DNA of 64,000 nucleotides from Protonemura montana. Its lineage: Eukaryota; Arthropoda; Insecta; Plecoptera; Nemouridae. Below, piece by piece: positions 5,151 to 61,935 of this stretch (the first letter of the stretch is position 1; every line of letters begins with the position of its first letter). The position numbers and the translations under genes are program-made. The notes under the pieces were generated by a model. It searched no databases. It was given only the letters and a program-made list of their open reading frames with translations, and was not told where the DNA came from. The stretch spans positions 11,534,001 through 11,598,000 of the forward strand of contig OX387612.1 in NCBI GenBank assembly GCA_947568835.1. Direction: 5' to 3'.

Positions 5151-5157
5151 AACAGGG

Positions 5158-20800: not shown

Positions 20801-23800
20801 GGTAAAATTGGTAAAAATTTTGTAATCTCGTTTGAATCTCGTACGAAAACGAGGGTCGCTATTTTTTCTGACATGAAGTGAAATCTGACGTCAGTGTGAC
20901 GTCAAGAAACAGAAGCGAACGCAAAGGATACAACAAAATGACGTCAGAACTACGTGTAGTTAATCACAGCCCGTTTTAATCCCGCCACGAGAATTCATAT
21001 TTTAGCCATTCTTAAAACAAATAGAAATAGAAAAGTTATGATCAGATTATAAAAAGAAAAAATACATCAGATTTTATTTTAAACGCGTATTTGAACACAA
21101 TGATAATAATTAAATAATTATCTTAATGAGATTTCCCCTATTGAACTTTGAATTTAAAGATCTTCTCGACAATTAGATCTTAAGATCTTTCTTTCTTTTT
21201 TTCCATACACATAGTTGGTTAGTTAGTAAAAAACGCCAATGTGTTCGAGATCTTATTTCAGAAAATACAAAATACATTAGTTTTTAAGTTATTGACCCTG
21301 ATTATTTTATTTAGATGCATTTAGGAAGCTTGAACTTGGTAATTGTTATAATTTTATGTGGTTCTTTTGTTATTGGAAAATTGTCAGGACTGCTCTTACC
21401 TCTGAAGAAGTAACTAATATATGTTACGAAACGTCGGGAAATTAAGTTGTCCTTTATTTAACATTCAAAACCCAGTTGAAATAGTTTTTCTTAAAAACCA
21501 AGATCTCGACGAACTCACCCCATGGAGACGGATCCCTCGTGATATGCGGATGAATCCGTCTCGAGGAAATGTTGCTCCTGCGACGACGCAGACTCGAAGG
21601 CTTCCGTCTGCTCCGAGCCGTCGGCCAAGAAACTGTCCTCGGTGAGAAACTCTGAGCCGGCTTCAAGCAGAACATCGTCCGTCTCTGAGACACCGACGCC
21701 CTCAACCTGGCAACGTCGGGCAGAGAATTAAAAGCCGAAGTCCTCCATCGAGGGCTTGGATATTTTTACAAGCTCAGCGAGCAAATCATATCTCCGATTT
21801 AATTAATTGATTTGTTGTGTTTAGCAAGGCACTGTTTTGACATCTGGCCATGCGGCACTGGTCTAATGGCGTCGGTGAATTAGTGGATGATGATGAACCT
21901 AACCTAGCCTAGAAGGGAGGAGGGGAAACCTGGTAGCCTACTCCTGTCGAAGAGCACCAAGGGGACCACCGGCTTAACGTCCCTTCCGAAGGACGGTACA
22001 ACGCGAACAACAGGATTCCTCCACAAATCCATGCTGTCGAGAGGTTGACAAGCAAGGCGAGTGAAGTTGCTGTACTAACTTTCATCCCTCCAACCTCTCT
22101 CCCGAACAGAACTGGTCATGTGTATGATGGTCACCCATCCAATACCTGACCCAGCGCAGTGTTGCTTAACTTTCATCCCTCCAACCTCTCTCCCGAACAT
22201 AACTGGTCGTGTGTATGGTGGTCACCCATCCAATACCTGACCCAGCGCTGTGTTGCTTAACTTTCATCCCTCCAACCTCTCTCCCGAACAGAACTGGTCA
22301 TGTGTATGATGGTCATCCATCCAATACCTGACCCAGCGCTGTGTTGCTTAACTTTCATCCCTCCAACCTCTCTCCTGAACAGAACTGGTCATGTGTATGA
22401 TGGTCACCCATCCAATACCTGACTCAGCGCAGTGTTGCTTAACTTCGGTAATCTAACTAGAACCTGTGTTTCCAACACGCCAAAATGGCTGTTCTGACTT
22501 TGATAAATCTATCAAGAAACCATTGCCTAATCATAATTTAAGCCACCTGAATTAAAAAAAAAGTTACATAGTTTTGTAGCTTTTTAAATTTACGAACATT
22601 TCCAGATTTTGTATAATTTTTTCCGAGCCGTATTCCCATAAGTGTCCCATTTTTTGCAAAGATTTCAAAACTAAGCGGTTGCAAATTTTTCCGAGTTTTC
22701 CTTTTCATTTCATTCACAGAAATCTCTTTAAATTTGAAACTATATATATATATATTTTTTTTTTGTGAGAAAATAATGAACACATATTTTTTATTTTCTT
22801 CTAAATCAAATTTTGAATAAAATATCTCTGTTTAAAATGTTTGCGTTTGAATCTCGTACGAAAACGAGGGTCGCCATTTTTTCTGATATGAAGTGAAATC
22901 TGACGTCAGTATGACGTCAAGAAACAGAAGCGAACGCAAAGAATACAACAAAATGACGTCAGAACTACGTGTAGTTAATCACAGCCCGTTTTAATCCCGC
23001 CACGAGAATTCATATTTTAGCCATTCTTAAAACAAATATAAATAGAAAAGTTATGATCGGATTATAAAAAGAAAAAATACATCAGATTTTATTTTAAATG
23101 CGTATTTGAACACAACGATAATAATTAAATAATAATCTTAATGAGATTTCCCGATTGGTATTACATATCACCAGCTCAAAATACCGCTACGCTCATCGCA
23201 ACTCGAACTGCGTTGCCCGGTTATAAAAAGTCGGAGTTCTTACCGTGATTCCGCTGTCCACGTTGTCGTCCTTGTCTTCAGCCATCATCTCCTCGAGAGC
23301 CTCTTCAACGGACATGACGGGTTTGTCTGCGTCAACGTCCGCACCTTTGTACACCACGTACTCTCCCTTGTCGTTCGTCGTGTACGCCACACCGCCGTCT
23401 GCAAACCCACTCGCTGGGAACCAAACAAGACACGTTTGTAGCCAAGAAATCTCATTTCAATTGCGAATGCTTGAAATGCAAAACGTTATTTTTTTATTAG
23501 GAACGCTGCTCAAGTATTTCCGCTATCGCGGCTTGCCACTCTACCTCCGTAAGTTCCGTACTCTCAATTTACTTTCCAAATCAACATATTCCTGTTATCC
23601 CAGAACTTTGGCACATTACAAATCAACATATTCTTGTTATCCCAGCACTTTGACACATTACAAATCAACATATTCTTGTTATCCCAGCACTTTGACACAT
23701 TACAAATCAACATATTCTTGTTATCCCAGCACTTTGACACATTACAAATCAACATATTCTTGTTATCCCAGCACTTTGACACATTACAAATCAACATATT

Positions 23801-26800
23801 CTTGTTATCCCAGCACTTTGACACATTACAAATCAACATATTCTTGTTATCCCAGCACTTTGACACATTACAAATCAACATATTCTTGTTATCCCAGCAC
23901 TTTGACACATTACAAATCAACATATTCTTGTTATCCCAGCACTTTGGCACATTACAAATCAACATATTCTTGTTATCCCAGCACTTTGACACATTACAAA
24001 TCAACATATTCTTGTTATCCCAGAACTTTGACACATTACAAATCAACATATTCTTGTTATCCCAGCACTTTGACACATTACAAATCAACATATTCTTGTT
24101 ATCCCAGCACTTTGACACATTATAAATCAACATATTCTTGTTATCCCAGCACTTTGACACATTACAAATCAACATATTCTTGTTATCCCAGCACTTTGAC
24201 ACGCTATACCGTTCGGGAGCCAGGAGGGGAACTTCGCCGCTGTGATTCAAGCCAGCGCGGCAGGCTACAGCGGAGTAAATTCCCCGACGAAAAAACGAAC
24301 AAAACCCGGACCCCGAACGTTGGAACAGGGTTCGTCATTACTTGGTACCGACCCGGGTATCCGAAGGCATCCCTATTAGATTACAAATCAACCGCTACCC
24401 TCTAAAAAATTGATTTTCTATGCCAATCGATCGAATTTTGTGGTACGTTTGCTGTTATTTACAAAAATTTCTTGATTACCAATTGTTTTTCTACGCTAGA
24501 AGAATATGTTATCTAAAGCAATAAGACGATGACAAACCCAATATCATGTTCGATTGATCGGGGAAATAATGAAATAATGATTATCTTACTACGCAGCCTA
24601 GACTGTATGTGATTGTAAAATAAAACCTCGGTACTTCAACCCCTCTCACCCGAAGGCATCCTCATGTTACTTCTCTTTTAGAACCGTCCGGTAAAACCGG
24701 CCAGCAACGTCGTGGGCTCACCTGTCATATTCTTCAGCGAGTCTTCGCGGACGTGGACAAAGTTTCCGTCGCCGTTGTCGAGCAGGATCGGCATGTCGGC
24801 GTCGGCATCCCCTCCGAGCACGAACTGGCCTTCCGAGATCTCGAAACCGGTCTGACAAACAAACAACAGTGAGGTGAGTTATCGACAAACATAGCTGTAG
24901 CATAATCTTTGCAACACCCGTGACAGATGAAGATTGGGGTCCAAGTAGCTCAATTGGTTAAAGCAACACCCGCGACAGGTGGAGATCGGGTTTTAAGTAG
25001 CTCAATTGGTTAGAGCAATGCCCGTGACGGATGGAGATCGGGGTCCAAGTAGCTCAATTGGTTAAAGCAACACCCGCGACAGGTGGAGATCGGGTTTTAA
25101 GTAGCTCAATTGGTTAGAGCAATGCCCGTGACGGATGGAGATCGGGGTCCAAGTAGCTCAATTGGTTAGAGCAATGCCTGTGACGGATGGAGATCGGGGT
25201 CCAAGTAGCTCAATTGGTTAGAGCAACACCTGCGACAGGTGGAGATCGGGTTTTTAGTAGCTCAATTGGTAGAGCCAAGATTTTATGGTGTTATGATTTC
25301 GTTAATTTCGTGGTAAGCTTTTTGGATTTCGGTGTTATGGCGGTGTTATGGAAAAAGTACAGAATTTCATGTCTATAGCAGATTTCGGACATAGGTGACG
25401 AAAAAAAGAAGAATAGTTAAACATAGTGTTTCTGTTCAATAAGTTCCTTTAAAATGTAGCTAATTTACCTTTATGTTTCATAAAATACACTGTTACGCCA
25501 CAAGGAAACTACAAAACAAATAAGACACAAGAAACATTTATCCGTATAAGCTCCATGTTTTTATTATTATTGATGCAAAATTAAATTAATTTCAATTAGC
25601 TCCTATTTGTAACACTAATTTTCCAAAAAGAGTTTATAACTAAAAAGTTTGTCAGTGAGGGGTTTGAGATTTTTATGTCCATTAGAATTTGAATTAGACC
25701 CACTGCCTGGTACTAACAACATACTTTGCAAGATTGTCTTTTTTCTCCCAGACAAGTCTGTGTTCCAGATTCCACACATCAAAATATATCCATCACTCAC
25801 AAAGTGTTGCTTTGTTTGATCCTCAAAAGTCAAAAATGTATTACACCCCATTGAAATTTGAAATCCCAGCTAATCTCTATATAGACTGAATGCATGTGGT
25901 GCTGGTGCTCACATGGCAAGGAGGGGAAGGTTCAGCCAACCAATGGCAATGGTTTCCTACAGCAAACAATTTGCCCCACTACTTCTACCCCCTAAACTTA
26001 GGAATGTTGACAGCGTTTGATGAGGAACAGACCTGACAACAAGACTGTGGGAAATAATCTGACAAATTCATGGAAATGTGTGTTTAGAGAGATAAAATAA
26101 ACATTTAAAATTTTTTGAATGGAAATTAGTGGCTATTTCGCAAAATACACACATTTTAGTGAAATGGGTTGTTTTGTTTGTTTATTTATTTTCCGTGATA
26201 TGTGGTTTGATAAAAATGAAAAAATAACAGATTATCTGAAATTTAAGATAATTGGATGGGAAAAGGCTCATTTCGCGATGATTTCGCGGGAAATAGTTGA
26301 TTTCGGTGTTATGGATGATTTTTCGTGAATTTCGCGTTATGTCGCGATGAGCTTCTTACATATTTGAGTTGGGAATTCAATGAATTGCACTCATTTGTAA
26401 GAATAACAAGAGATAAGAACAATTCGCGATTTCGCGCATCACCATATAATCGTGGCTCTATCAATTGGTTAGAGCAACACCCGTGACAGGTGGAGATCGG
26501 GGTTCGAGTCCCCGTTTGGTCATCATTATCAATATTTGAGAGGTTATTAGTGTTCCTTATAAATAAAGGCTACAATAACTTGAAGCCATCTGAAAAATGG
26601 CTTCAAATTTGACACGATTAGCAATTTTGTTAATTCACTTCGTTAGCGTAAAGTATTCACGGCGTAGCTTTGCCAAACGAAAATAATATTAGTCTGAACA
26701 GGCTACACGTTCACCAGCAAGTAACACCATGCTTGGTCTTCTGAGATGAGAATTCTGGCAATACAAAAAGTATTTTACTGATGGGACAGCTAATAAAAAC

Positions 26801-29800
26801 ATGCTTGGATAGCACTCAAGAGAACGAATCGAACAAAAACTATTTCAACTGGGTTTTGAATACTTAGTAAAGAACAACTAAATTTCCCAACGTTTTGTAA
26901 CTTGTACCTGTTACTTTATCAAGGGTTTGAGCAGTCCTGAAAAAGTAGCCCTTGACGAAATAACCGGTATAAGTTACGAAACGTTGGGAAATTTAGTTGT
27001 CCTTTACTTAGCATTCAAAACCCAGTTGAAATAGTTTTTGTTAAAACTAGTGCTAAGGCTAGTGCTAGTGCTAGTGCTAAATCAAGTTGCCATAAGACTA
27101 AAAACCATCATAGAGAACGGCTCGAACCTGTGGTTCTGGAAGCTGGTAGTTGAGGATGTTCTGTGTGTTCCCGTCCTTGTCCAGCAGTGGATTGCCGTGC
27201 TGGTCGGAGATGGTTCCGTCCGGCAGTTGATAGATGACGTTGTCTTCCACGGGAGCAGCCGGCTGTTCTGCTGACACCAGTCAAGAAAGGTTATTTTTAA
27301 TTTAAATGCACATTCTACTACCACCGGCTTAACATCCCTTCCTAATGACGGTACAACTCCAACAACAGGATTCCTCTACAAATCCATGCTGTCGAGAGGT
27401 TGATAAGCAAGGCGAGTGAAGTTGCTGTACTAACTTTCATCCCTCCAACCTCTCTCCCAAACAGAACTGGTCATGTGTATGATGGTCACCCATCCAATCC
27501 CTGACCCAGCACAGTGTCGCTTAACTTTCATCCCTCCAACCTCTCTCCCGAACAGAACTGGTCATGCGTATGATGGTCATCCATCCAATACCTGATCCAG
27601 CGCAGTGTTACTCAACTGCTAGCTATACGGTGGCTCACCTATTTGGTAGATGATGTTTGTCTCTGGGTCCTGGTACAGTGTTGACTCGTGGGAGGTTGCG
27701 ATGGGTGCGGGTGGCGGAGCTTTATCAGGCGCCGGCTTCATCGGTCGAGGACGCTTCTTGTTGCCCAAGATGCTGCAAGGAGAGATTGGTTATAAACGGA
27801 CCGTGCCGAGCATGAAATGTGCTCCAAAAGGGGAATTGCCTTTTTTTGTTTATATATTTTAATTCGTCTGTTTTAGAGTCCTTTTGATTTATCGATGAGA
27901 AGTTTTCGCATCGTATGTTTGGCATTGTCAGAGATGTTGTGCTGGTATAATGGTGGGGTGAGGAGGGTTGGTGTAATGATTGAACGGGGCAAGTTGTTAT
28001 GCGGTTGTCAGGTTTGTTGCCAACCAATCATGCGTCTGATTTACAACGAAAAAAAAAAAAAACTTTTTCCATAAAAATCACAAAACTGTTTAAAATCCCT
28101 CTTCGTTAGAACTTTGCGACTTTTGTCTTACTTGGAGTGTGTTGGCTTGCTGAGTGGGGGTGGCGTGGGTTGCGGCTCGTTCCGCACGTTCCGTGCCGGG
28201 AGGCGGTTCTTGGGGGGCATGGGGGCGACGCCCCCGACAGCCTTCTTGAGCAGGTTCGGTTGGGTTGGAGCGCCCAGCGTCTTCTTGGGCTTCCCCTCCG
28301 AGAGTGACAGCAGCAGCTGGGCATTGGCCGCCTGCGCAAACAATAGCTTTTATAACATAAACCGCAGAGTTGAGAGAGATCATCGAGTTCGAAAAAAAAT
28401 AGTTTCAGACATAACTGTAATAGCATTTCCATCAAAATTATACTTGGCGCTAGAAATTAAGGCTCTATTACTCTTCACAATATCCAGTCTCTTGGCATCC
28501 TATTCACAATATCCAGCCTCTTGGCACCCTATTCACAATATCCAGCCTCTTGGCATCCTATTCACAATATCCAGCCTCTTGGCATCCTATTCACAATATC
28601 CAGCCTCTTGGCATCCTATTCACAATATCCAGCCTCTTGGCATCCTATTCACAATATCCAGCCTCTTGGCACCCTATTCACAATATCCAGCCTCTTGGCA
28701 TCCTATTCACAATATCCAGCTTCTTGGCATCCTATTCACAATATCCAGCCTCTTGTCATCCTATTCACAATATCCAGCCTCTTGGCATCCTATTCACAAT
28801 ATCCAACCTCTTGGCACCCTATTCACAATATCCAGCCTCTTGGCACCCTATTCACAATATCCAGCCTCTTGGCATCCTATTCACAATATCCAGCCTCTTG
28901 GCATCCTATTCACAATATCCAGCCTCTTGGCACCCTATTCACAATATCCAGCCTCTTGGCATCCTATTCACAATATCCAGCCTCTTGGCATCCTATTCAC
29001 AATATCCAGCCTCTTGGCACCCTATTCACAATATCCAGCCTCTTGGCATCCTATTCACAATATCCAGCCTCTTGGCATCCTATTCACAATATAGAGATAC
29101 TATCACTATCAGATATTGAATTGAAGTTTAATGACCAACTGTTTTGAGCATGGAGACAAATCTTCAACTGTCAGTTATTTTTTTAGCTTTCAACGGTGGA
29201 AAATTCTTAGGTGCTTACTGCCATACAACAAACAAAACTTTGCCAAACCATTGAAGAAAATAAAAAGCGCATACCTGCGATTCTTGAGTGGCTTGCGCCG
29301 CCACCGTTTTCGGCACGGTGTGGAACACAGCGCGGCCCTCGCCTGCGCCGGAAGCGCCTGGTGTCAGCGTCTTCGTCGTCTTCACCGATTGGATGTTGAC
29401 ACGTTTCTGCGGACGAACGAACGCCTTGTGCGTCCCGATCGAGACCGATGGGTTCGGTGCACCTGCGCAAGCCGTGTTATGAGAACACCGCTCTAGGTCG
29501 GGGTCACTGCTTGGTGCTATGGTGGTGCTAGTTAGCACAGTGCTACTGACAGTAATACCAGGGTCACTGCTTGGTGCTATGGTGGTGCTAGTTAGCACGG
29601 TGCTACTGACAGTAATACCAGGGTCACTGCTTGGTGCTATAGTGGCGCTAGTTAGTACGGTGCTACTGACAGTAATACCAGGGTCACTGCTTGGTGCTAT
29701 GGTGGTGCTAGTTAGCACGGTGCTACTGACAGAAATACCAGGGTCACTGCTTGGTGCTATGGTGGTGCTAGTTAGCACGGTGCTACTGACAGTAATACCA

Positions 29801-32800: not shown

Positions 32801-35800
32801 ATATATGTTCAACTACAGAGCATCAGTGGGAAGTATATATGTTCAACTACAGAGCATCAGTGGGAAGTATATATGTTCAACTACAGAGCATCAGTGGGAA
32901 GTATATATGTTCAACTACAGAGCATCAGTGGGAAGTATATATTTTCAACTACAGAGCATCAATGGGAAGTATATATGTTCAACTACAGAGCATCAGTGGG
33001 AAGTATATATGTTCAACTACAGAGCATCAGTGGGAAGTATACATCCTACTAGTTTATTTAACAGTTATGCTCAATATTATTAAAAAATATATATGTTGAA
33101 CCAATTTTACAATTTAGTAAGAGAATATTTTACAAAAATCAAAAAAATGCTTTGACCATAAGAGGGTTGAAATAGTACGCATCAAATCTCATGTCCTCCT
33201 GTTTGGTGACTCGAACAAGTTTTATTTAAATTGCAAATTTTCGACCTTTTGCGAGTATTTGCAATTTAAATAAAGTATCCTCGAGATTGACAGGTTGTGA
33301 CGTGATATAGCGTCACTAGAATCAGAGTGACTGTGAGTATTCACAGCCTCTTGGTTCTACTCCTTGGAGAACTGTCATTCTCATCAAATACACTAAAATC
33401 GTCTCAAAAAGCCAGTGTCCAAGTAGCTCAATTGGTTAGAGCATCACCCGTGACAGGTGGAGATCGGGGTCCAAGTAGCTCAATTGGTTAGAGCATCACC
33501 CGTGACAGGTGGAGATCGGGGTCCAAGTAGCTCAATTGGTTAGAGCAACACCCGCGACAGGTGGAGATCGGGGTCCAAGTAGCTCAATTGGTTAGAGCAT
33601 CACCCGTGACAGGTGGAGATCGGGGTCCAAGTAGCTCAATTGGTTAGAGCAACACCCGTGACAGGTGGAGATCGGGGTCCAAGTAGCTCAATTGGTAAGA
33701 GCAACACCCGCGACAGGTGGAGATCGGGGTCCAAGTAGCTCAATTGGTTAGAGCAACACCCGCGACAGGTGGAGATCGGGGTCCAAGTAGCTCAATTGGT
33801 TAGAGCAACACCCGCGACAGGTGGAGATCGGGGTCCAAGTAGCTCAATTGGTTAGAGCAACACCCGCGACAGGTGGAGATCGGGGTCCAAGTAGCTCAAT
33901 TGGTTAGAGCAACACCCGCGACAGGTGGAGATCGGGGTCCAAGTAGCTCAATTGGTTAGAGCAACACCCGTGACAGGTGGAGATCGGGGTTCAAGTAGCT
34001 CAATTGGTTAGAGCAACACCCGCGACAGGTGGAGATCGGGGTTCGAGTCCCTGTTTTCATTATCAATATTTGAGAGGTTATTAGTGTTCTTTATAATTAA
34101 AGGCTACAATAACTTGAAGCCATCTGAAAATTGGCATTATTAAAATCTTGTATATGATGAAAAGTTAGCACAAGTATTTTCGATGCAGCTTTGCCAAAAG
34201 GATGGAATATCTGTGTAAACTTTATCTGGGTTATAAAAAAGCACCAAACGCACATCCCGAAGAAAAATGGCAAGAAGATTTTGCAAATGTTGGAACCTTT
34301 CGTGAACATCTGCCATCTTGGTGGAAATGTTCATCATAAACAAAAATAACCCTGAACACAAAAATAAAATCATTGAGTTTATAAGAAAAGACAGAGAGCC
34401 GGTGTTAACGTTACGTTTTCTGCCGAGCAAACGAGCCGGCCACACGTTTAACTCAACGATTAAATTACTCCGACTCAAAATATCTATGCATGTCTATCAA
34501 TCGTTGAGGTTAGCATTAATAAAGATTTTTAGTGAGAAAATCTGTCCTATATACAAGTAAACTGAATACCGATATGAAATTTTTTAACATACGAAACGAC
34601 GGTGACTCAACCGAGCGGCATCCTACATTTTTGTTGCGGTAAAGAAGTAATTTGGCGGCCATTTTATCCAGGGTTTATTTATTTGTGGTGTTTAACGACG
34701 CACTGTTTTGACAACTGGTCATGCGGCATTGGTCTAATGGCGTCGGTGAATGAGTGGATGATGATGAGGATGATGATGAAGGAGGCAATTTGACTATTTG
34801 CACTGAACCCACAAACCTTCAGAACAAACTTGTGCCTTAAGTTGCAATAGAACCAGTCGAATGCAGTGAATGAAAAAAAATGACACCAAAAGAATTTTAG
34901 TGTCCAAAAATTGATGTTCGGGAAAAAAATGGCTCAGCGCTATGAACAATTTGCAATTGACGAATCAAACAAAAATTAATAAATAAACGTAAGATAAAAA
35001 CAAGGGTCCATACACATAATTATTTAGTTAAAAAACGCCAACGTGTTTGAGATCTTATTTCAGAAAATACATAATACATTAGTTTTTAAGTTATTGACCC
35101 TGATTATTTTGTTTAGATGCATTTAGGAAGCTTGAACTTGGTAATTGTTATAATTTCACGTGGTTCTTTTGTTATCGGGAAATTGTCAGGACTGCTCTTA
35201 CCTCTGAAGAAGTAACTAGTATATGTTACGAAACGTCGGGAAATTTAGTAGCCCTTTACTTAGCATTCAAAACCCAGTTGAAATAGTTTTTGTTAAAACT
35301 TGTGCTAAGAATAAATCAAGTAGACATGAGTCTAATAACCATTTTAAGGGTCCCATGCAACCACTTAGCTCGGTGTAATGTTCTTACCTGGAAAAACTTG
35401 GCGGCCTGCAGAAGAGCCGGCAGATTTTCCTCGGTGACGCTGGTCTCCCCGCAGTACATGAACTCAATCAGAGACTTGAGTACCGAGAACTGCATATCTT
35501 TCAATACAATCAGCGGATGCTGACCAAGATTACGCATGAGGATTCCCTGAATTAAAAAACAATATTAATTAACAAATTAGTTTACCTAGGTTCCTATTAT
35601 TCCTCAATTTGTTACTTTTATCACCAAATTATTTATTTCCCATCCATATTTATTATAAAGTAATTTATCATAAGTATTATTACTATATTAGTATCATAGT
35701 TTGTAGGTATGTTCCTACCACACTAGTATTACTACTATACCATCAGAATTATTATTATCATTATTACTATATTAGTATCATAGTTTGTAGGTATGTTCCT

Positions 35801-50960: not shown

Positions 50961-50999
50961 GTTACTTGAGTTATTGAGCAAGCGGTGATCTCACGAGGA

Positions 51000-52050
51000 T
51001 CTGTGTTTCCAACACGCCGAATCGTTCGGTGGCCACCCATCCAATACCTGACCCAGCGCAGTGTTGCTTAACTTTCATCCTTCTAACCTCTCTCCCGAAT
51101 AGAACTGGTCATGTGTATGATGGTCACCCATCCAAAACCTGACCCAGCGCAGTGTTGCTTAACTTTCATCCCTCCAACCTCTCTCCCGACCAGAACTGGT
51201 CATGTGTATGATGGTCACCCATCCAATACCTGACCCAGCGCAGTGTTGCTTAACTTTCATCCCTCCAACCTCTCTCCCAAACAGAACTGGTCATGTGTAT
51301 GATGGTCACCCATCCAATACCTGACCTAGCGCAGTGTTGCTTAACTTTCATCCCTCCAACCTCTCTCCCGAACAGAACTGGTCATGTGTATGATGGTCAC
51401 TCATCCAATACCTGACTCAGCGCAGTGTTGCTTAACTTTCATCCCTACAACCTCTCTCCCGAACAGAACTGGTCATGTGTATGATGGTCACTCATCCAAT
51501 ACCTGACTCAGCGCAGTGTTGCTTAACTTTCTTCTCTCCAACCTCTCTCCCGAATAGAATTGGTCATGTGAATGATGGTCACCCATCCAATACCTGACCT
51601 AGCGCAGTGTTGCTTAACTTTCATCCCTCCAACCTCTCTCCCGAATAGAACTGGTCATGTGTGTGATGGTCACCCATTCAAAACCTGACCTAGCGCAGTG
51701 TTGCTTAACTTTCATCCCTCCAACCTCTCTCCCGAATAGAACTGGTCATGTGTATGATGGTTACCCATCCAATACCTGACTCATCACAGTGTTGCTTAAC
51801 TTCATCCCTCCAACCTCTCTCCCGAATAGAACTGGTCATGTGTATGATGGTTACCCATCCAATACCTGACTCATCACAGTGTTGCTTAACTTCATCCCTC
51901 CAACCTCTCTCCCGAATAGAACTGGTCATGTGTATGATGGTTACCCATCCAATACCTGACTCATCACAGTGTTGCTTAACTTTCATCCCTCCAACCTCTC
52001 TCCCAAACAGAACTGGTCATGTGTATGATGGTTACCCATCCAATACCTTA
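51000..52050 (-). repeat. 5S-derived 91-bp array, about 11 units, no SINE body
   Basis: The head start GGCGTGTTGGAAACACAGAT (51020-51001) is followed, on the - strand, by box-A and box-C units repeated to about 52050. There the array passes directly into repeat R rather than the SINE body. Three consecutive units near 51705-51986 are almost identical, a recent local duplication. Confidence 0.92.
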
Positions 52051-52104
52051 ACAAATTATTACATGTATTACATTATTATGTAAAAAAATTACATGTTCTT
52101 ATTA

Positions 52105-53290
52105 GAGGTTGTTTCGTGCTTCAGTTTTGATTGGTTGGGTAGATTGATTAGGGTTTGATTGGTTCGGTAGATTGGTTAGGTTTTGGTGTAGAAGGGCCGT
52201 TTCTTTGTCGCTTTGACCATCGTTAGGGTCGCCAGAATTAGGTTGATTTGTTGTTCTAGTTTTCATGTCAATTTTTTTTTTGTCTTCTCTCATGTTGCGT
52301 TTTTTTCTTAGCTTGCCTTACGCCTAAAACATGTAATATTGTGGTAAATAAAACCAACGTAAAATCATAGCAGATTGGGTCATAAGGGAGAGTAGGGTTT
52401 CCTCAGATGCTTTGAGATTCATGTGACCAAATTTACAAGCCATAGGACTTTATCGCTCGCCTGCATAACGTTCCTGTTTGCACCCGTGGGGCCCGCCCCG
52501 ACGTTCGGTTTTCATGGTTTCCGCGCGTTTAAGTTAAGCTAATGCTGGGCGATTGATTATAATCTCCACAAATCACAGATTATAATCGGCCATGACCACT
52601 GACCTCACGGAACAAACGCTTGGAAATATCAAATGAATCACTCTCGCAGTCCGCAAGATTTACATGAACACAAACACGTGAATAGTAATTCAGATATTGT
52701 TAAAGCATTTGAATTGTATTTGATAGCGATATTATTGTCAATCTATGTATTGTGTTGTGATATAAAAATTTACAACCCTACAGCCATTTGATTGGGATCC
52801 CTGGTTGAAAAGGAATTCTACGAGTTTACTCTGCTGGTAAAACTGGAATTCCTGTAACTTTCACTTCCAAATTATCCTTCTGTGTAAAAGTATGTTCTTA
52901 TAATTTCACAATACTTTCGAGTTGGGCCGGGTTTTCGTCTGGTAGTTGCAGCCGGTTTAGTAGTTCACGCTTCTCTGTTAAGTTTCCTATTTTAGTTGAA
53001 ATTGTAAATGTTATTATTCTTTTAGTGCATTCTCAGCATATAAGTAATTGCTGTGTGTTTTTCTACTGATTTATGTCTTTTTTTGCCTGATTTAAGTTTT
53101 TTCGTGGTTATTTTTTAAGTTCTTGCAATATTTTTCATTTCTTTTTGTTCGAATTTGCGCCTATGGGTTTTTATCACATGGTCCATTGCCGACTTCTCGA
53201 TCGGCTCAGCGGGCATGATTATAGCCTCCTAAGGGGTACTTATATTTCCGCCATTTTCAATCTGAATGTGCCGCTAGTTGGAGTCCGGTG
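52105..53290. repeat. Dispersed repeat R, copy 2
   Basis: Same orientation and order as 3005-4345, with substitutions and small gaps throughout. It joins the 5S array on its left. Confidence 0.8.
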
Positions 53291-54660
53291 GCGAATAGGC
53301 CACTAACGCCCACGTGACTGCCCTTTGCTCTGCCCATCCAAAACACAACCATTTTTTGAATGTTGCTAAACTTCGGTGGCCGACGGTAAGCTATCATTTC
53401 AAGTTCCAATGAATGTACACAAACTTACTCCTCTTAAATACCACTTGTAATCCCTTCCAACGAATTTAGAGACAGCTGAAACAATGATTTGAATGACAGA
53501 GATGTGTGTGATCATTATCAATAATAGAAACGCAGTTTTATCAAAAAAGAATCTGCGTCAAGGCATCGATCAGCTGGCATGTAAACTAGCAGACTAAAAT
53601 GGTAAGTAACAGTGGTCAATGCAAATCTGTTAGATTCTCGAGTTCAAAAGACCACAGCAGTGCGTTTGGTGTATGGTCTTAAGAAACGGTAAACGATTGT
53701 AAACGAGCTTGATGTCAGATCTTAAAACAAAAAAACCCGCTCCATTCTGACAAATGTCTTCCTGAAGTGTTTTGCAGTGATAAAGTAATTACAATGATGT
53801 CAGTGTTCTTTGGTTTCTTGCACACCTTTTTATTTATTAGGTCGATTAACGGTTATTTAAGCAGAGTTGTTTTAGCCTATTAAATATGCGTGCTGGTTCT
53901 TTACAAAGTTTAGTGATCTCAGCAGGTCCATAGCAGTCACTGGCTCCTCTGGTACCTAAACTCAACAGACTCTACCTTACAGTTGTTGTAGCAATCATTG
54001 AATACAATGACAATGAATCGAAGGGTGAGTGTAATTGCAGTTTTGCTTATTTTTCTGTTACTAATAAGATATTTCTAGCATCAAGTTGTCTGAAAAGAAC
54101 AGTAATGCAGAGATTTATTTGTAATATTATCACAGGCATGGTAAATGGTCAGAGAATTCAGACTTGAGGGTTGAACGCAATTTCTCAGCGGCGCCATGTT
54201 CTTGCTTGGCTTGTTGTGTTTAACGACGCACTGTTTTCACAACGGGCTTTATGTCACTGAGCTGATGCCACTGAGCTGGGCTTTATGTCTACTCGTGAGC
54301 CGCTAAGAAATGCAGTAGGTGCTACAGATTTAACCACATAGTTGAGTGCATACAAATTATCGATTACTGCGACCAGTTTTTCTGCGAATAAAAAATAATC
54401 TGAAAAGTGGTTGTAAATATCTCTAATTATAACAAGAATTTTCCTAATTTAGAGGAATAATTTCTAGTAAGTTCCTGATAACAAAATACCTTTCAAATGA
54501 CTTCCAGCAAAAAGCTGGACCAAAAATTAATGGGAAGTGTTTCCCTAAAATTCCCTAAAACAGGGATGCAGTTCGCAGACCTGCCGTTCACTTAAAAACA
54601 AGAGAACGCCGCGCGTGCTCGACCAGTCGTGACAAAATCTGAATCGTTTCAGGAACACGT
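53290..54660. other. Upstream region of the secreted-protein gene
   Basis: No coding-like frame. A 5S-SINE tail scrap (GTGTTTAACGACGCACTGTT) lies at 54218. The 70 bp before the ATG are GC-richer and probably form the 5' UTR; CACTTAAAAACAAG near 54590 is a possible TATA-like element. Confidence 0.4.
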
Positions 54661-54661
54661 T

Positions 54662-56281
54662 ATGCAAAACCTGTCCGCGGCAGTCGTCGTCTTCGTCGTG
54701 CTCCTCTCCGCCGTCTCCGCCGTCTCCGCTGCCGATGGGTAAGAAATGGTACATAGGGGCAGGGTCCAGGCAAGGCTGGGACACGAGACATGGGACATGG
54801 AGGCAGGGTCCAGACAAGGCTGGGACATGGGACATGGGACATGGGGGCAGGGTCCAGGCAAGGCTGGGACACGAGACATGGGACATGGGGGCAGGGTCCA
54901 GGCAAGGCTGGGACACGAGACATAGGATATGGGGGCAGGGTCCAGGCAAGGCTGGGACATGGGACATGGGACATGGGGGCAGGGTCCAGGCAAGGCTGGG
55001 ACACGAGACATGGGACATGGGGGCAGGGTCCAGGCAAGGCTAGGACACGGGACATGGGACATGGGGACAGGGTCCAGGCAAGGCTGGGACATGGGACATG
55101 GGGGCAGGGTCCAGGTAAGGCTGGAACATGGGACATGGGGGCTGGGTGCAGGCAAGGCTGGGACACGGGACATGGGACATGGGGGCAGGGTCCAGGCAAG
55201 GCTGGGACACGGGACATGGGACATGGGGGCAGGGTCAAGGCAAGGCTGGGACATGGGAAATGGGGGCAGGGTCCAGGCAAGGCTGGGACACGAGACATGG
55301 GACATAGGGGCAGGGTCCAGGCAAGGCTGGGACACGAAACATGGGACATGGAGGCAGGGTCCAGGCAAGGCTGGGACACGAGACATGGAAAATGAGGGCA
55401 GGGTCCAGGCAAGGCTGAGACACGAGACATGGGATATGGGCATACAAGAGTCGAACCTGACCTTGGCTTAGCACAAGGTCACATGGTCCTAGTAACATCC
55501 TAATACCCAGTAAAAGCAATAAAATACACTTACTTTTTTTTGTTTTTTTTACTTTTTCAGTGAAATTATCGACCAACTTACACCCAGCCTGGCAACGCTG
55601 ACAAAGACAGAAACTGTCACCCTCACCATACCGCCATTAACCATCACAGAGACGTTCACGACGTCAGCAAAAGAAATCCACTTTCGTACCGTAACACAAA
55701 CTGAACAAGCGTGCTCCGACATTTCGCCAACCACGATAACTAAAACCATAGACGAGTACTCCTCGACACGTCTGGAAGAATGTCTTCGAGACATGAGTTC
55801 TATTTTAGGTGAGAAACCGACAAATATCGCTGGTGTTACCACAACTTTACCGGGATCAATGCTGCTGGAAACAACAGTCACAGAAGCGCCTGCAACTGTC
55901 ACCAATTATTTCACAGAGACCGTTACTTTTAGCGAATTTGAAACCTCTACAACTGTCAAAAGTGACAGTACAGATGAGTTTGTTGAATCGCTGACCACTT
56001 TGATGAAGCGTATTGCGGATATTTATCCGTTTGTTGAAGCAGCTGATAAAGTGGTGTTGGATTTGTTGACTTCTGTTGCTGATGTCAAGAGAGTTGAGTT
56101 GCAGTTGAAAGAATTGCCGAGAAATCAGAGGGAATTAGCTGTCAGTGAGTTGTTGGAGTTGACAGAATCTATAAGGGGGATGGTGAAAGAGGATGATAGC
56201 TATAAAAGAGTGGTACCTATTAATTTTATGGGATCTGTTAAGAGATTGGTTAGATATTTGCAAAGGTTGATTAGGTTTTGA
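54662..56281 (+). CDS. Secreted Thr-rich protein, two exons, 265 aa
   Basis: Exon 1 (54662-54738) starts MQNLSAAVVVFVVLLSAVSA and continues VSAADG, a clear signal peptide with an Ala-rich cleavage region. Exon 2 (55561-56281) joins in phase across GTAAGA and TTTTTCAG. Residues about 27-135 are Thr/Val/Glu-rich with repeated T-x-T-V-T-like phrases (LTKTETVTLTIPPL, ITETFTTSAK, NYFTETVTFSEFE), likely O-glycosylated. Only two Cys are visible. The last 115 residues look helical and charged (ELQLKELPRNQRELAVSELL) and end basic, RLVRYLQRLIRF. AATAAA lies at 56448. No known domain was recognised; the order of signal peptide, Thr-rich region and helical C-terminus suggests an extracellular or mucosal product. 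The intron is mostly a minisatellite. Confidence 0.82.
54755..55440. repeat. About 45-bp G-rich minisatellite, about 15 units
   Basis: Unit GGGGGCAGGGTCCAGGCAAG followed by GCTGGGACACGAGACATGGGACAT with variable length. It fills about 85% of the single intron of the secreted-protein gene. Strand-asymmetric G content is high. Confidence 0.95.
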
Positions 56282-56447
56282 GGGGATTTTTTGATGTGAT
56301 TTGCAATTTTTGGAAATATGTAATGACGTGTTGCGGGATTTTTTGTGTTTTTTACATTTCAGTCTGAGTGCCAGCGCTAATGTTAAACTGCTCGCCTGTA
56401 AAGATTGGTGTGGTTTTAAATTAGTAATGGATGGCACTCTGAAACTG

Positions 56448-56453
56448 AATAAA
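56448..56453 (+). promoter_or_regulatory. Polyadenylation signal of the secreted-protein gene
   Basis: AATAAA 167 bp after the stop codon. A second AATAAA follows near 56554. Confidence 0.5.
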
Positions 56454-56589
56454 CCCAATGGAAATATGACCGTATTTATTTATATAATTACAGCAAAAAA
56501 AAAAATTGTTATGCCTACATGTTGTTCCTGTTTTTCCTGCGGATTTTCATTGTAAATAAAAAAAAAACAAAAATCAATTGATCATAAAA

Positions 56590-57170
56590 CAATATTGAGT
56601 CACAAAATATGAATAAAACTAGCAGTACCCGCTGCCTAACGGCCGCTTAAGATTTTGAGGGAGTGGGCATTTTGGTTTAAATGGGACCACAACCAAAAGT
56701 ACCGTGCAATACCATACAGTACCCCCATTTATTGTGTTTGAAATTTGCTGTGATCAAAAATTTTTGAGACGGTGATTTCTTTTTGTGATTTCCACTTTGA
56801 CTTCATACGATTTTTCAGAAAAAAACGGTCGGCAAGTTTGCCAACCGAACAAAATTTAGAAAAAACGTGCACCTATTTTTTCCTCCAATTTTGAGTAAAA
56901 ATTTGAAGGTAAAGGATATTTGTTGAAGTACCAAATTGAACGAATTTTTGGCCGGTATAAGAGAGAAGCATGAGGTATGTTGGAGGGGGGGGGGGACTCC
57001 CCCAGGTATGTTGGAGGGGGGGGGGGGGGGGGCATGGGAAACCATAAAGGAAAATTTTTAAAGAAAACAAAATATCACACTAAAGGGTGGACAAAGATTA
57101 AATTGAAAACATACTGAAAACACACTGCACACTTGATTTTGATTACAAACTTGTAAGTACACAAGTCGGA
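56590..57170. other. Intergenic DNA with duplicated G-tract
   Basis: GGTATGTTGGAGGGGG occurs twice (56973 and 57005), with runs of 11 and 18 G. A SINE-tail-like phrase TTTTTGAGACGGTGA is near 56761. No gene seen. Confidence 0.5.
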
Positions 57171-57424
57171 AAGATGCACGCCGTCTTTACCGGCTTAATG
57201 GTTAGTTTACTGGCCACCGATGGCGCGGCCGGTCACACAAACAATCTGAACAGATACTTGCAGCGTTACTATATTATTACCCAGACGCAAGGTCATTAAA
57301 GCGCCTGGCGGTGGTAAATGCAAGCTCTCAGGGATTTTATTCACAACGGCAAACAGGACCAATATCAAGTTGTTGGAAACGCAGCAATGTACTTAGCTGA
57401 TTTATTGATTTGTTAAGTTCAATA

Positions 57425-59245
57425 ATTGTGTTTAACGACGCACTGTTTTGACATCTAGCCATGCGGCACTGGTCTAATGGCGTCGGTCAATGAGTGGATA
57501 ATGATGAACCTAACATAGCCTAGAAGGGAGGAGAGGAAACCCGGTGCCGGCACGTAGCCTACTCCTGTCGAAGAGCACCAAGGGGACCACCGGCTTAACG
57601 TCCCTTCCGAAGGACGGTACAACGCGAACAACAGGACTCCTCCACAAATCCATGCTGTCGAGAGGTTGATAAGCAAGGCGAGTGAAGTTGCTGTACTAAC
57701 TTTCATCCCTCCAACCTCTCTCCCGAACAGAACTGGACATGTGTAGGATGGTCACCCATCCAATGCCTGACTCAGCGCAGTGTTGCTTAACTTTCATCCC
57801 TCCAACCTCTCTCCCGAACAGAACTGGTCATGTGTATGATGGTCACCCATCCAATACCTGACCCAGCGCAGTGTTGCTTAACTTTCATCCCTCCAAACTC
57901 TCTCCCGAACAGAACTGGTCATGTGTATGATGGTCACCCATCCAATACCTGACCCAGCACAGTGTTGCTAAACTTTCATCCCTCCAACCTCTCTCCCGAA
58001 CAGAACTGGTCATGTGTATGATGGTCACCCATCCAATACCTGACCCAGCGCAGTGTTGCTTAACTTTCATCCCTCCAACCTCTCTCCCAAACAGAACTGG
58101 TCATGTGTATGATGGTCACCCATCCAATACCTGACTCAGCGCAGTGTTGCTTAACTTTCATCCCTCCAAACTCTCTCCCGAACAGAACTGGTCATGTGTA
58201 TGATGGTCACCCATCCAATACCTGACCCAGCGCAGTGTTGCTTAACTTTCATCCCTCCAACCTCTCTCCCGAACAGAACTGGTCATGTGTATGATGGTCA
58301 CCCATCCAATACCTGACCCAGCGCAGTGTTGCTTAACTTTCATCCCTCCAACCTCTCTCCCGAACAGAACTGGTCATGTATATGATGGTCACCCATCCAA
58401 TACCTGACCCAGCGCAGTGTTGCTTAACTTTCTTCCCTCCAACCTCTCTCCCGAACAGAACTGGTCATGTGTATGATGGTCACCCATCCAATACCTGACC
58501 CAGCGCAGTGTTGCTTAACTTTCATCCCTCCAACCTCTCTCCCGAACAGAACTGGTCATGTGCATGATGGTCATCCATCCAATACCTGACCCAGCGCAGT
58601 GTTGCTTAACTTTCATCCCTCCAACCTCTCTCCCAAACAGAACTGGTCATGTGTATGATGGTCACCCATCCAATACCTGACTCAGCGCAGTGTTGCTTAA
58701 CTTTCATCCCTCCAAACTCTCTCCCGAACAGAACTGGTCATGTGTATGATGGTCACCCATCCAATACCTGACCCAGCGCAGTGTTGCTTAACTTTCATCC
58801 CTCCAACCTCTCTCCCGAACAGAACTGGTCATGTGTATGATGGTCACCCATCCAATACCTGACCCAGCGCAGTGTTGCTTAACTTTCATCCCTCCAACCT
58901 CTCTTCCGAACAGAACTGGTCATGTGTATGATGGTCACCCATCCAATACCTGACCCAGCGCAGTGTTGCTTAACTTTCATCCCTCCAACCTCTCTCCCGA
59001 ACAGAACTGGTCATGTGTATGATGGTCACCCATCCAACACCTGACCCAGCGCAGTGTTGCTTAACTTTCATCCCTCCAATCTCTCTCCAGAACAGAACTG
59101 GTCATGTGTATGATGGTCATCCATCCAATACCTGACCCAGCGCAATGTTGCTTAACTTTCATCCCTCCAACCTCTCTCCCGAACAGAACTGGTCATGTGT
59201 ATGATGGTCATCCATCCAATACCTGACCCAGCGCAATGTTGCTTA
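57425..59245 (-). mobile_element. 5S-derived SINE with about 17 tandem heads
   Basis: Tail GTGTTTAACGACGCACTGTT at 57430, body 57510-57690, then about seventeen 91-bp 5S units (57700-59245). This is the longest array here, with very similar units. No complete 5S head start is seen; the array instead meets the tRNA-SINE tail at 59246. Confidence 0.92.
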
Positions 59246-59335
59246 ACTTCGTTGAAGTTCGGGGTTTGAGTTCCCGTTTGGTCATCAATTTTTGATAGGT
59301 TTTCAGTGTTGCTTAAAATAAAGTTAAAAACTTTA
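59246..59335 (+). mobile_element. tRNA-SINE 3' part fused to the 5S array
   Basis: GTTCGGGGTTTGAGTTCCCG, TTTGGTCATCAATTTTTGAT: a degraded T-arm and the tRNA-SINE tail, joined to the end of the 5S array in the opposite orientation. Confidence 0.7.
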
Positions 59336-59351
59336 TTAATTTCTAGCTCAC

Positions 59352-59546
59352 CGACGTCGCAACGCCAACGCTTTTGTCTTGCGCACTCGGCGTCGTCTGT
59401 CGCGACGCCTGGAAGCTGAGCGGTCGCTCAGTGTATCGTCGTCCGGCGTCGGTTTGTGATCGTTCAGCGGGCGTCGGTTTGTGATCGTTCAGCGGGCGTC
59501 GGTGAAAAGCGTCTGATCGCGAGCGTCGAGTCCTGACAAGTTCCAT
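59352..59546 (-). CDS. First coding exon of an unidentified gene
   Basis: A CpG-rich island of about 200 bp in AT-rich surroundings. The - strand reads MELVRTRRSRSDAFHRRPLN, then a basic, Ser/Thr/Gln-rich stretch ending KSVGVATS, followed by a good donor GTGAGC (59351 down). 65 codons, phase 0. It contains a short internal duplication (GTCGGTTTGTGATCGTTCAG twice). No partner exon downstream could be assigned within the window. It could instead be a CpG-rich promoter with a chance open frame. Confidence 0.4.
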
Positions 59547-59559
59547 GGTGAGGATTTTT

Positions 59560-59945
59560 TTTTCAGATTTAGATTTTTTTTAATTACTGTATTTTAATAA
59601 AATATATTATATGTTTATGTTTTATTTTACAAAATAATACATCAATAGTAATCTTTACTTTTTTTGTCTGCCATGAAATCAGTGAACCGGAAAACATTCT
59701 TGTAAAACATCAGTAATTTTTAACAATTATGAAAATTAAGTGAAAAGTCAACTGATTCAGTTTTAAATTTATTTTAAGCAAATCTTTTCTTAATCGCATT
59801 CAATTCTTATTTCCTTCAAAACAAACTCTTGCTTTCTGCGAATCTTGTAAAAGAATCTGAACAAATTTAAGAAATTTCATTAATTTCAAAGCCATCAAGA
59901 TCTTATTTTTCTTAAACTTCAAGCAAATTCATAAAGATGACCGTG
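59560..59945. other. AT-rich DNA, nothing recognised
   Basis: Very AT-rich, no frames or repeats seen. Confidence 0.4.
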
Positions 59946-59949
59946 AAAC

Positions 59950-60373
59950 CGTTGAGTGTAGGTTCTAGGTAGAGTTTCAACGTCAATGTTACAGTCTCTG
60001 TGTGAAAGATGGCCGCCAAATGACTACCTTACCGACAAAAATGCAGAGTACCGGAACATCACGTTAAGTGGAGCCACTGTCGTATGAAATTTAATTTCGA
60101 TATTTATCGTAGGTTAACTCGCTTTGGAGACTTTTTATGCTCAAAAAATCTCCATCAATGTTTACCTCAACGATTGATAAACACGTAACGATATTAAAAA
60201 GCGAGTAACTTACTATAAATATCGAAATTAAATTTCATACGACAGTGGCTCCACTTTACGTGATGTTCCGGTACTCTGCATTTTTGTCGGTAAGGTAGTC
60301 ATTTGGCGGCCATCTTTCACGCAGAGACTGTAACATTGACGTTGAAACTCTACCTAGAACCTGCACACTCAAC
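59950..60373. mobile_element. Palindromic MITE family P, copy 6
   Basis: CGTTGAGTGTAGG at the left; right end GCACACTCAAC with a 2-bp insertion in the terminus. Placed directly before the next 5S array. Confidence 0.88.
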
Positions 60374-60389
60374 AACTGAACTGAACTGA

Positions 60390-61460
60390 ACTGGTCATGT
60401 GTATGATGGTCACCCATCCAATACCTGACTCAGCGCAGTGTTGCTTAACTTTCATCCCTCCAACTTCTCTCCCGAACAGAACTGGTCATGTGTATGATGG
60501 TCATCCATCCAATACCTGACTCAGCTCAGTGTTGCTTAACTTTCATCCCTCCAACCTCTCTCCCGAACAGAACTGGTCATGTGTATGATGGTCACCCATT
60601 CAATACCTGACCCAGCGCAGTGTTGCTTAACTTTCATCCCTCCAACCTCTCTCCCAAACAGAACTAGTCATGTGTATGATGGTCACCCATTCAATACCTG
60701 ACCCAGCGCAGTGTTGCTTAACTTTCATCCTTCCAACCTCTCTCCCGAACAGAGTTGGTCATGTGAATGATGGTCACCCATCCAATACCTGACTCAGCGC
60801 AGTGTTGCTTAACTTTCATCCCTCCAACCTCTCTCCCGAACAGAGTTGGTCATGTGAATGATGGTCACCCATCCAATACCTGACCCAGCGCAGTGTTGCT
60901 TAACTTTCATCCCTCCAACCTCTCTCCCAAACAGAACTGGTCATGTATATGATGGTCACCCATCCAATACCTGACCCAGCGCAGTGTTGCTTATCTTTCA
61001 TCCCTCCAACCTCTCTCCCGAACAGAACTAGTCATGTGTATGATGGTCACCCATTCAATACCTGACCCAGCGCAGTGTTGCTTAACTTTCATCCTTCCAA
61101 CCTCTCTCCCGAACAGAGTTGGTCATGTGAATGATGGTCACCCATCCAATACCTGACTCAGCGCAGTGTTGCTTAACTTTCATCCCTCCAACCTCTCTCC
61201 CGAACAGAGTTGGTCATGTGAATGATGGTCACCCATCCAATACCTGACTCAGCGCAGTGTTGCTTAACTTTCATCCCTCCAACCTCTCTCCCGAACAGAG
61301 TTGGTCATGTGAATGATGGTCACCCATCCAATACCTGACCCAGCGCAGTGTTGCTTAACTTTCATCCCTCCAACCTCTCTCCCAAACAGAACTGGTCATG
61401 TATATGATGGTCACCCATCCAATACCTGACCCAGCGCAGTGTTGCTTAACTTCTATGATC
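60390..61460 (-). repeat. 5S-derived 91-bp array, about 12 units, no SINE body
   Basis: Same unit as 57700-59245, with a block of units sharing the variant AGAGTTGGTCATGTGAATGA that recurs in order (60740-60960 and 61110-61410), so multi-unit segments were duplicated. Head-like end ATGATCTCACGAGGACCGGT near 61457-61476. Confidence 0.92.
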
Positions 61461-61479
61461 TCACGAGGACCGGTGTTTA

Positions 61480-61935
61480 CAATTCGCTACTGGCTTGGTC
61501 ACTAATGACTTTGCCGACAGAAAGATATTTCGTATTAAGACTCATTTCACGAGCAATCAAACTCAGTAAACAAGTCGTGGCTCAAACTTATCAACTTTTG
61601 AAAACATATCAGAGGCCAAATAATTGTTTACAGGGTTTGTTTAAAGGGTTTTTAGACAGGTCTAGATGGAGAACCCAAATATTTAACTTAAAATGTCTTA
61701 GCAATTTTGGATTGATGTGTAATCGAGCTTGAGCAGGAAGTGCCTGTTGTTAGCTGATTTATCATAACATATTCTACGAGCGGAATTTCATCGAAGCTTC
61801 CTTAGTGATGATTACTTAAACTGTCAATCATTCGAGATCGATTCATCAAACTTTCTTTTAATGATGTTTTCACAATGTAAATATAGCGTGATCAGTGGCG
61901 GAACATGATTCCTTGAGTCTGTGTTTACATTCATT
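61480..61935. other. Intergenic DNA, no supported gene
   Basis: A 97-codon frame starts inside the 5S array and runs to 61732, with no homology I recognise and no splice or start support. Confidence 0.4.

What the first reader, a model, noticed from the sequence alone, without database searches (positions are those of the whole stretch)
51000..61460. 5S-rRNA promoter module amplified into arrays of 3 to 17 units
Several loci in this window carry the same 91-bp unit: the 5S internal promoter (box A to box C) plus a linker. In at least five copies the units form the head of a SINE with one body; at 51000-52050 and 60390-61460 the units stand alone. Unit number varies widely, and variant units recur in ordered blocks, pointing to unequal exchange or replication slippage after insertion. 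A SINE whose promoter head expands into satellite-like arrays is unusual and may show how a Pol III element seeds satellite DNA.
Basis: partly seen in the sequence, partly recalled or inferred. Interest (0 to 1): 0.75.

Follow-up and report, generated by a model that had tools for sequence, protein, structure and literature searches.

The report
SINE promoter heads forming variable arrays
A common short mobile element in this animal carries a 5S-rRNA-like head that repeats in tandem from one to over twenty times, and copies of one and the same insertion with different numbers show that the repeats are gained and lost after the element has landed.

Summary
Seven arrays of a 91-bp unit (2 to 17 copies) lie in the window; the unit is 5S rRNA from about nt 49 to 92 plus a linker, and five arrays join one SINE body. 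Genome-wide there are 7,632 unit-body and 26,664 unit-unit junctions; single-headed copies are common and dispersed. Decisive new evidence: one SINE insertion was copied with a surrounding repeat, and 34 copies could be measured. 26 differ by exact multiples of 91 bp and carry 3 to 23 units, so unit number changes after insertion. Multi-variant units repeat within loci (23 identical pairs) but hardly between them (1). Arrays are longer near contig ends (rho -0.65, partial sample). Against a purely local origin: site 22 is mixed A/G even in 4 of 10 two-unit copies, and mean divergence is the same within and between arrays; multi-headed copies were probably also inherited, or units move between loci. 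Promoter boxes are not better conserved than the linker, and other SINE pieces form arrays, so selection on the promoter is unsupported. A 6-bp direct repeat bounds the unit, a plausible seed. Closest known: SINE-derived satellites of squamate reptiles. New variant of a known kind.

The parts
1046..1845 (+). SINE copy: 5S start 1046-1088, 5 units 1089-1546, body and AAT-like tail about 1546-1845
   Evidence: body and tail end read by eye
4527..5157 (-). SINE copy with 3 units (4834-5113), 5S start 5114-5157, body about 4527-4833; sits inside a larger repeat and is one of 34 measured copies of the same insertion
21800..22493 (-). SINE copy with 4 units (22076-22445), 5S start to 22493, body about 21800-22075
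27325..27615 (-). SINE copy with 2 units and a shortened body; no 5S start
51030..52048 (-). Stand-alone array of 11 units, 5'-truncated; its 3' end (about 50990-51030) runs into a second 5S start without a body
57410..59249 (-). SINE copy with 17 units (57697-59249) and body about 57410-57696; 5' flank joins exactly at the unit edge
60383..61498 (-). Stand-alone array of 12 units with 5S start (61453-61498); 3' end in the linker next to a foldback element (arms 59956-60116 and 60206-60366)
8549..8690 (+). Relic 5S-like head preceded directly by the end of another head (joint without linker); no body; Rfam score below the cut-off
17203..17507 (-). 36-bp array, 8.5 copies, of the SINE body segment bounded by ACAGCA; the same body continues at about 17000-17202
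33417..34061 (+). Array of a tRNA-like SINE head, 52-bp unit, 12 copies, ending in a complete tRNA-like head (Rfam tRNA 33989-34061)
24911..25275 (+). Second array of the 52-bp tRNA-like unit, 7 copies, with a 156-bp higher-order period

Best explanation
This is most likely a LINE-dependent SINE of a pancrustacean animal with a 5S-rRNA-derived head. In the single-headed form two copies of AAGTTA lie exactly 91 bp apart, one in the 5S part and one at the linker/body joint; slipped copying or unequal pairing on this short repeat duplicated the 91-bp segment (inferred). Two- or more-headed copies then arose, and some probably served as sources of new insertions (inferred from the mixed site 22). 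After insertion, arrays gained and lost whole units and blocks of units by unequal exchange, slippage or conversion (shown for one insertion measured in 34 copies, and by private repeated blocks at single loci; which of the three is not resolved). In the sample the process ran furthest near contig ends. The unit behaves as a minisatellite carried by a SINE, not as a selected promoter array.
For: SINE: 5S head, common body, common stretches of 9 bp or more at both ends in 10 of 39 complete copies against 3% in mismatched pairs; 8 of the 10 are 9-14 bp long, one of these in an 8-unit copy, L070. Abundance: 7,632 unit-body and 26,664 unit-unit junctions at up to 3 mismatches, 0 for the reversed control. 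Single heads: 40 of 40 scored candidates span the query at 93-99% on 11 contigs; 19 of 20 fetched are single. Change after insertion: 40 upstream and 48 downstream junctions of one insertion, 34 paired; 26 distances fit 384+91n exactly, n = 3 to 23, 3 lie within 2 bp, 5 do not fit; unit maps of 23 copies show shared unit types in shared order and a block duplication in L128 (23 units) against L125 (11). Locus-specific blocks: 23 identical pairs with 2 or more differences within arrays, 1 between, of 1,430 and 56,540 possible pairs; shuffles give mean 0.54, maximum 3 (one search had lost one array to a name clash and gave 23 and 1 of 1,414 and 53,532). Position: rho -0.65 over 68 copies. Seed: AAGTTA at consensus positions 51 and 142, ACAGCA at 150 and 186; 95 of 56,595 possible breakpoint pairs have 6 bp or more.
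Against: Mean differences within arrays (4.64) equal those between arrays (4.71; 50 arrays); permutation mean 4.79, minimum 4.39. Units one difference from the consensus are shared freely between loci (188 identical pairs between, 41 within, null 5.46; counts for 1 or more differences). Site 22 is mixed in 38 of 53 body-joined arrays, also in 4 of 10 two-unit and 4 of 5 three-unit arrays. Single heads and arrays differ in subfamily sites (site 22, body 72 and 79), although within C1 above 27 Mb the body difference is not significant (P=0.26). In the copied insertion the end trend is reversed (rho +0.43, P 0.02, 29 copies), and the fitting copies have 3 or more units, so the first doubling itself was not seen. 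The position sample covers C1, the left end of C2 and the window only. Contig ends are not shown to be telomeres; TTAGG repeats are scattered inside C1 and the first listed lies at 0.92 Mb. AAGTTA is only one of 12 direct repeats of 6 bp or more in the single-head consensus, and four others are 7 bp long, so homology alone does not explain why this one dominates; the ACAGCA repeat exists in the window's body variant, not in the consensus.
Confidence: 0.75

Rival explanations
1. Purely local origin: every array was born at its locus from one inserted head and expanded there; sources are always single-headed.
For: Single heads are common; private blocks repeat within loci and not between; in the sample arrays are long near contig ends and short inside.
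Against: Both alleles of site 22 in 4 of 10 two-unit arrays, against about 5% expected from private mutation (P=0.001); within-array divergence not below between-array divergence; the same unit phase in the arrays examined.
Confidence: 0.12
2. Fixed multimer: a source with many heads is copied whole and unit numbers at loci reflect only 5' truncation.
For: Mixed site 22; 32 body-joined copies lack the 5S start, 25 of them with two or more units.
Against: One insertion carries 3 to 23 units in its copies although the 5S start is the marker used to find them; private unit blocks; 19 other arrays that keep the 5S start and have 3 or more units differ in number.
Confidence: 0.03
3. Selected promoter array: extra heads are kept because they raise Pol III transcription or act as Pol III or TFIIIA sites.
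For: The unit holds most of the 5S internal promoter; a tRNA-like promoter head is arrayed in the same window.
Against: 5S part varies 2.3-2.8% per site, linker 2.0%, in 240 interior units (2.3-2.9% and 2.0% in 235 units); a promoterless 36-bp body piece is arrayed too; unrelated minisatellites fill the window.
Confidence: 0.06
4. Exchange between loci (gene conversion or ectopic exchange) spreads units among arrays, which explains mixed site 22 without multi-headed sources.
For: Mixed alleles, equal divergence within and between arrays, and one-difference units shared between loci.
Against: Units with 2 or more differences are almost never shared between loci: 1 identical pair of 56,540.
Confidence: 0.04

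Closest known systems
SINE-derived satellites (sSats) of squamate reptiles, Vassetzky et al. 2023, PMC10702118 (abstract, Background, Squam3, orthologous-loci, localisation and Discussion sections read)
   Same: Part of a SINE repeated in tandem within SINE copies; unit number varies between loci and, in 26% of orthologous pairs, between two rattlesnakes; locus-specific alternating subvariants; preference for subtelomeric regions, stronger for longer loci.
   Different: There tRNA-derived SINEs of squamates; here a 5S-derived head in a probable pancrustacean, head core plus linker as unit, one insertion measured in 34 copies of a surrounding repeat, and a short direct repeat at the unit edges. 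The authors left open whether such satellites occur outside squamates.
5S-derived satellites such as PcP190 of frogs (search listing with abstract starts only)
   Same: Tandem repeat containing a 5S-like region.
   Different: PcP190 unit about 190 bp with a 120-bp 5S-like region; the listing mentions no SINE body.
Cassandra retrotransposons with a 5S promoter (search listing and passages, PMC10853983)
   Same: Mobile element with a 5S-derived Pol III promoter; tandem arrays of elements are cited there.
   Different: LTR-type plant elements, not SINEs; there whole elements stand in tandem, here the promoter core with a linker.
Transposons with internal tandem repeats, e.g. Tetris in Drosophila virilis (search listing only)
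   Same: Repeats inside a mobile element seed satellite DNA.
   Different: DNA foldback transposon, not a Pol III element.

Membership tests
SINE with 5S-derived head (SINE3-like type, name recalled) | Pol III head similar to 5S rRNA | tested here: met
   64 of 76 columns identical to the genome's 5S nt 17-92; Rfam hits above cut-off at 4 heads
SINE with 5S-derived head (SINE3-like type, name recalled) | Thousands of dispersed copies sharing one body and simple tail | tested here: met
   7,632 unit-body junctions; body consensus from 91 copies; AAT/AATC tails
SINE with 5S-derived head (SINE3-like type, name recalled) | Target-site duplications | tested here: met
   10 of 39 complete copies have a common stretch of 9 bp or more, most of them directly at the element ends; 3% in mismatched pairs; 29 of 39 show none that long
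SINE with 5S-derived head (SINE3-like type, name recalled) | 3' end shared with a partner LINE | not tested
   No LINE search was made
SINE with 5S-derived head (SINE3-like type, name recalled) | Pol III transcription | not testable with these tools
   No expression data
SINE-derived satellite (as in squamates) | Tandem units derived from part of a SINE, ending in the rest of that SINE | tested here: met
   Unit scans and body junctions
SINE-derived satellite (as in squamates) | Preference for chromosome ends | tested here: inconclusive
   rho -0.65 with distance to contig end in a partial sample, but the copied insertion shows rho +0.43 and ends are not shown to be telomeres
SINE-derived satellite (as in squamates) | Homogenised units in long arrays | tested here: not met
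   No lower divergence within arrays on average; only private blocks. Array length was not tested apart.

The most novel reading that the evidence does not exclude
Head number is a heritable, changing trait of the element itself: multi-headed transcripts are retrotransposed, the heads expand or shrink at each landing site, and the altered copies can seed the next round, so that a Pol III element keeps throwing off satellite-like arrays, fastest near chromosome ends.
Probability: 0.35. Interest if true: 0.7.

Novelty: new variant of a known kind. Interest (0 to 1): 0.5.

Why it matters
How satellite DNA starts is mostly inferred from finished arrays. Here several steps lie side by side in one genome: single-headed copies, two-headed copies, arrays of up to about twenty units, and 34 copies of one insertion whose unit maps can be compared like alleles. 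It extends SINE-derived satellites from reptile tRNA-SINEs to a 5S-SINE of a probable pancrustacean and offers a concrete seed, a 6-bp direct repeat, that can be tested.

Tried and rejected
Strand bias: the lists seem to show only plus-strand copies over megabases of C1; the whole counts are balanced (3842/3790 and 13384/13280), and a run of exactly 40 plus-strand places suggests a listing cap, so I do not claim a bias. Segmental duplication as the cause of clustering: most flank pairs are unrelated; the exceptions led to the copied insertion. Subfamily as full cause: body difference not significant inside one region. Multi-headed sources proved by 5'-truncated copies with target-site duplications: no clear case (1 of 32 with a match of 9 bp or more, null 1.8%, and by eye that one is a second SINE tail). 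The distal limit of 1.5 Mb was set after seeing the data; the rank test does not depend on it.

Rows dropped: of the 100 listed junction places (of 7,632) I fetched 70; five of the 70 (L015, L019, L023, L029, L031) gave no parsable unit and drop out. Copies chosen by BLAST (L091-L110) were left out of the position and unit-sharing tests because the query biases them to one head; L107 among them has two heads and is in the two-unit count. Three copies of the shared insertion, arrays cut by the locus edge, arrays without body and the C1:62 kb array were left out of the position test. One search lost one array to a name clash; one search repeats it with 47 arrays and 341 units, and the odds did not need changing. 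Six of 40 upstream junctions of the copied insertion found no downstream partner.

In print: the listings show no title or abstract start about 5S-SINE head arrays; I read only PMC10702118 in sections and passages of PMC10853983, and the library lacks most subscription papers. Species: not identified; mitochondrial tRNA order around cox1 (I, Q, M, nad2, W, C, Y, cox1, L2, cox2, K, D; nad2 and cox2 recognised by eye) and table-5 code point to Pancrustacea (meaning of the order recalled).
Full report
Observation. The seven 91-bp arrays are in the sequence at the stated places, with 5, 3, 4, 2, 11, 17 and 12 unit cores by a fuzzy scan. Rfam reports 5S rRNA at four of the heads. The first-stage range '3 to 17' becomes 2 to 17. 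Five arrays run into the same body; two stand alone.

What it is. The head aligns to the genome's own 5S gene over nt 17-92, 64 of 76 columns identical. Behind it lie a linker, a body of roughly 280 bases and AAT- or AATC-like tails. Ten of 39 complete copies have a common stretch of 9 bp or more at both ends, against 3% of mismatched pairs; an 8-unit copy (L070) is among them. This is a SINE by these marks; its partner LINE was not sought and transcription could not be tested. The mitochondrial contig has a pancrustacean tRNA order (its meaning recalled). The window is C15:11,534,001-11,598,000 of a 258-Mb genome.

How many. Unit-body junctions: 7,632; unit-unit junctions: 26,664, both at up to 3 mismatches and with no match for the reversed control. 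At 91 bases per unit-unit junction this is about 2.4 Mb (arithmetic). A single-headed query of 195 bases from L012 was matched end to end or nearly so by 40 of 40 scored candidates (444 in the first look), 93-99% identical, on C1-C5 and C11-C16; of 20 fetched, 19 have one unit and L107 has two. Among the 68 body-joined copies of the position test, 21 have one unit, the rest 2 to 17.

The key experiment of nature. The copy at window 4527-5157 (3 units) shares both SINE/flank junctions and flanks with L016 on C1 (6 units) and L051 on C2 (7 units): one insertion, copied with its surroundings. The two junctions occur 40 and 48 times. In 34 pairs the distance gives the unit number without reading the array: 26 fit 384+91n exactly (n from 3 to 23; chance 1 in 91 each), 3 lie within 2 bp, 5 do not fit; six upstream junctions have no partner. 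Unit maps of 23 of these copies share unit types in shared order, with units and blocks gained or lost; L128 (23 units) carries a doubled block relative to L125 (11 units). So unit number changed after this insertion. Whether the changes fell during copying of the surrounding repeat or between times is not known. Eleven of the 34 lie within 0.3 Mb of a contig end, so some copies may be duplications of contig-end DNA and not transpositions.

Private arrays. In 47 arrays with three or more units (341 units), identical units with two or more differences from the consensus form 23 pairs within arrays and 1 between, of 1,430 and 56,540 possible pairs; shuffling gives 0.54 on average and 3 at most (which mends a name clash). 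Seven loci repeat ordered unit pairs, among them the window's 17-unit array. This is local duplication of blocks. Units with one or more differences give 41 pairs within and 188 between (null 5.46 within), so simple variants are shared widely.

Results against a purely local origin. Average divergence is the same within and between arrays (4.64 and 4.71 of 91; 50 arrays; permutation not significant). Site 22 carries A or G and both occur in 38 of 53 body-joined arrays, in 4 of 10 two-unit copies and 4 of 5 three-unit copies. In three closely related copies of the shared insertion (L111-L113) the site is the same across all four units, so it does not look hypermutable. Single heads not chosen by BLAST are mostly A (15 of 21), array interiors mostly G (25% A of 221). 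The simplest account is that some sources already had two or more heads.

Position. Unit number falls with distance from the contig end: rho -0.65, P about 1e-9 over 68 copies; -0.65 without the window; -0.42 (P 0.004) on C1 alone. Within 1.5 Mb 1 of 25 copies is single, beyond it 20 of 39 (window left out). The copies come from the first 100 places of a list sorted by position (C1 and the left end of C2) plus the window, so this is not a genome-wide sample. The shared insertion shows the opposite trend (rho +0.43, P 0.02). Contig ends are not proven telomeres.

Seed. In the single-head consensus AAGTTA stands at 51 and 142, exactly 91 apart, where the unit of the arrays begins and ends. The 36-bp body array at 17203-17507, seen again at L057, is bounded by ACAGCA at 150 and 186 in the window's body variant. 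Only 95 of 56,595 possible breakpoint pairs have 6 bp or more of homology; yet the consensus holds 12 direct repeats of this length or longer, most of which gave no array in the 287 kb scanned. The tRNA-like 52-bp unit has weaker homology (read by eye). This fits short-repeat slippage as the first step, but the first doubling was not observed.

Promoter role. In 240 interior units the 5S part varies at 2.3-2.8% and the linker at 2.0% per site. Together with arrays of other SINE pieces and many other minisatellites in the window, this speaks for general tandem-repeat dynamics and not for selection on the promoter.

Known and new. SINE-derived satellites of squamates (PMC10702118, sections read) are the same kind: parts of tRNA-SINEs in tandem, locus-specific subvariants, different numbers in some orthologues, preference for chromosome ends; their authors leave open whether it occurs elsewhere. 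New here are the 5S head, the probable pancrustacean host, the series of copies of one insertion, and the direct repeat at the unit edge.

Noticed in passing
33417-34061 and 24911-25275: A tRNA-like SINE head also forms 52-bp arrays (12 and 7 copies): a second Pol III promoter type in tandem; a single-copy form stands in L037 after its array.
   Followed up: partly
17203-17507: 36-bp piece of the 5S-SINE body in 8.5 copies, recurring with 2.2 copies at L057:390-467.
   Followed up: partly
whole window: Many other minisatellites (34-bp x 64, 50-bp x 20, 29-bp x 21, 31-bp x 20, 42-bp x 15, 92-bp x 10 and others), several read through as long ORFs.
   Followed up: no
59956-60366 and about 8727-9130: A foldback element (arms 97% complementary) next to a body-less array, and by eye a similar one next to the relic 5S head.
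   Followed up: partly
40331-40478 and 43380-43526: Two hits below the cut-off to a microRNA family model (MIR7504), perhaps an inverted-repeat element.
   Followed up: no
L022, L053, L063, L064, L066, L077, L082, L090 and window 59249: Body-joined copies whose 5' flank joins at the unit edge (AAGTTA, or with its first base changed) without the 5S start (by eye); cause unknown.
   Followed up: partly
G000:C1, e.g. 916562, 11637666, 16525145, 22384693: Interstitial TTAGG arrays far from contig ends (9,672 overlapping matches genome-wide).
   Followed up: no
L061:289-801 and its 3' side: A 96-bp variant unit and a 15-bp microsatellite made of part of the unit linker.
   Followed up: no
L063 and L011: Pairs of arrays in opposite orientation with related flanks, palindrome-like.
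   Followed up: no
G000:C11:70-105743: True 5S genes, three per repeat with a period of about 9.5 kb for much of the stretch, at the start of a contig; further 5S genes at C15:8741-66866 and on C23.
   Followed up: no
G000:C4:5760925-5777755: Copies of mitochondrial cox1 inside a large contig.
   Followed up: no
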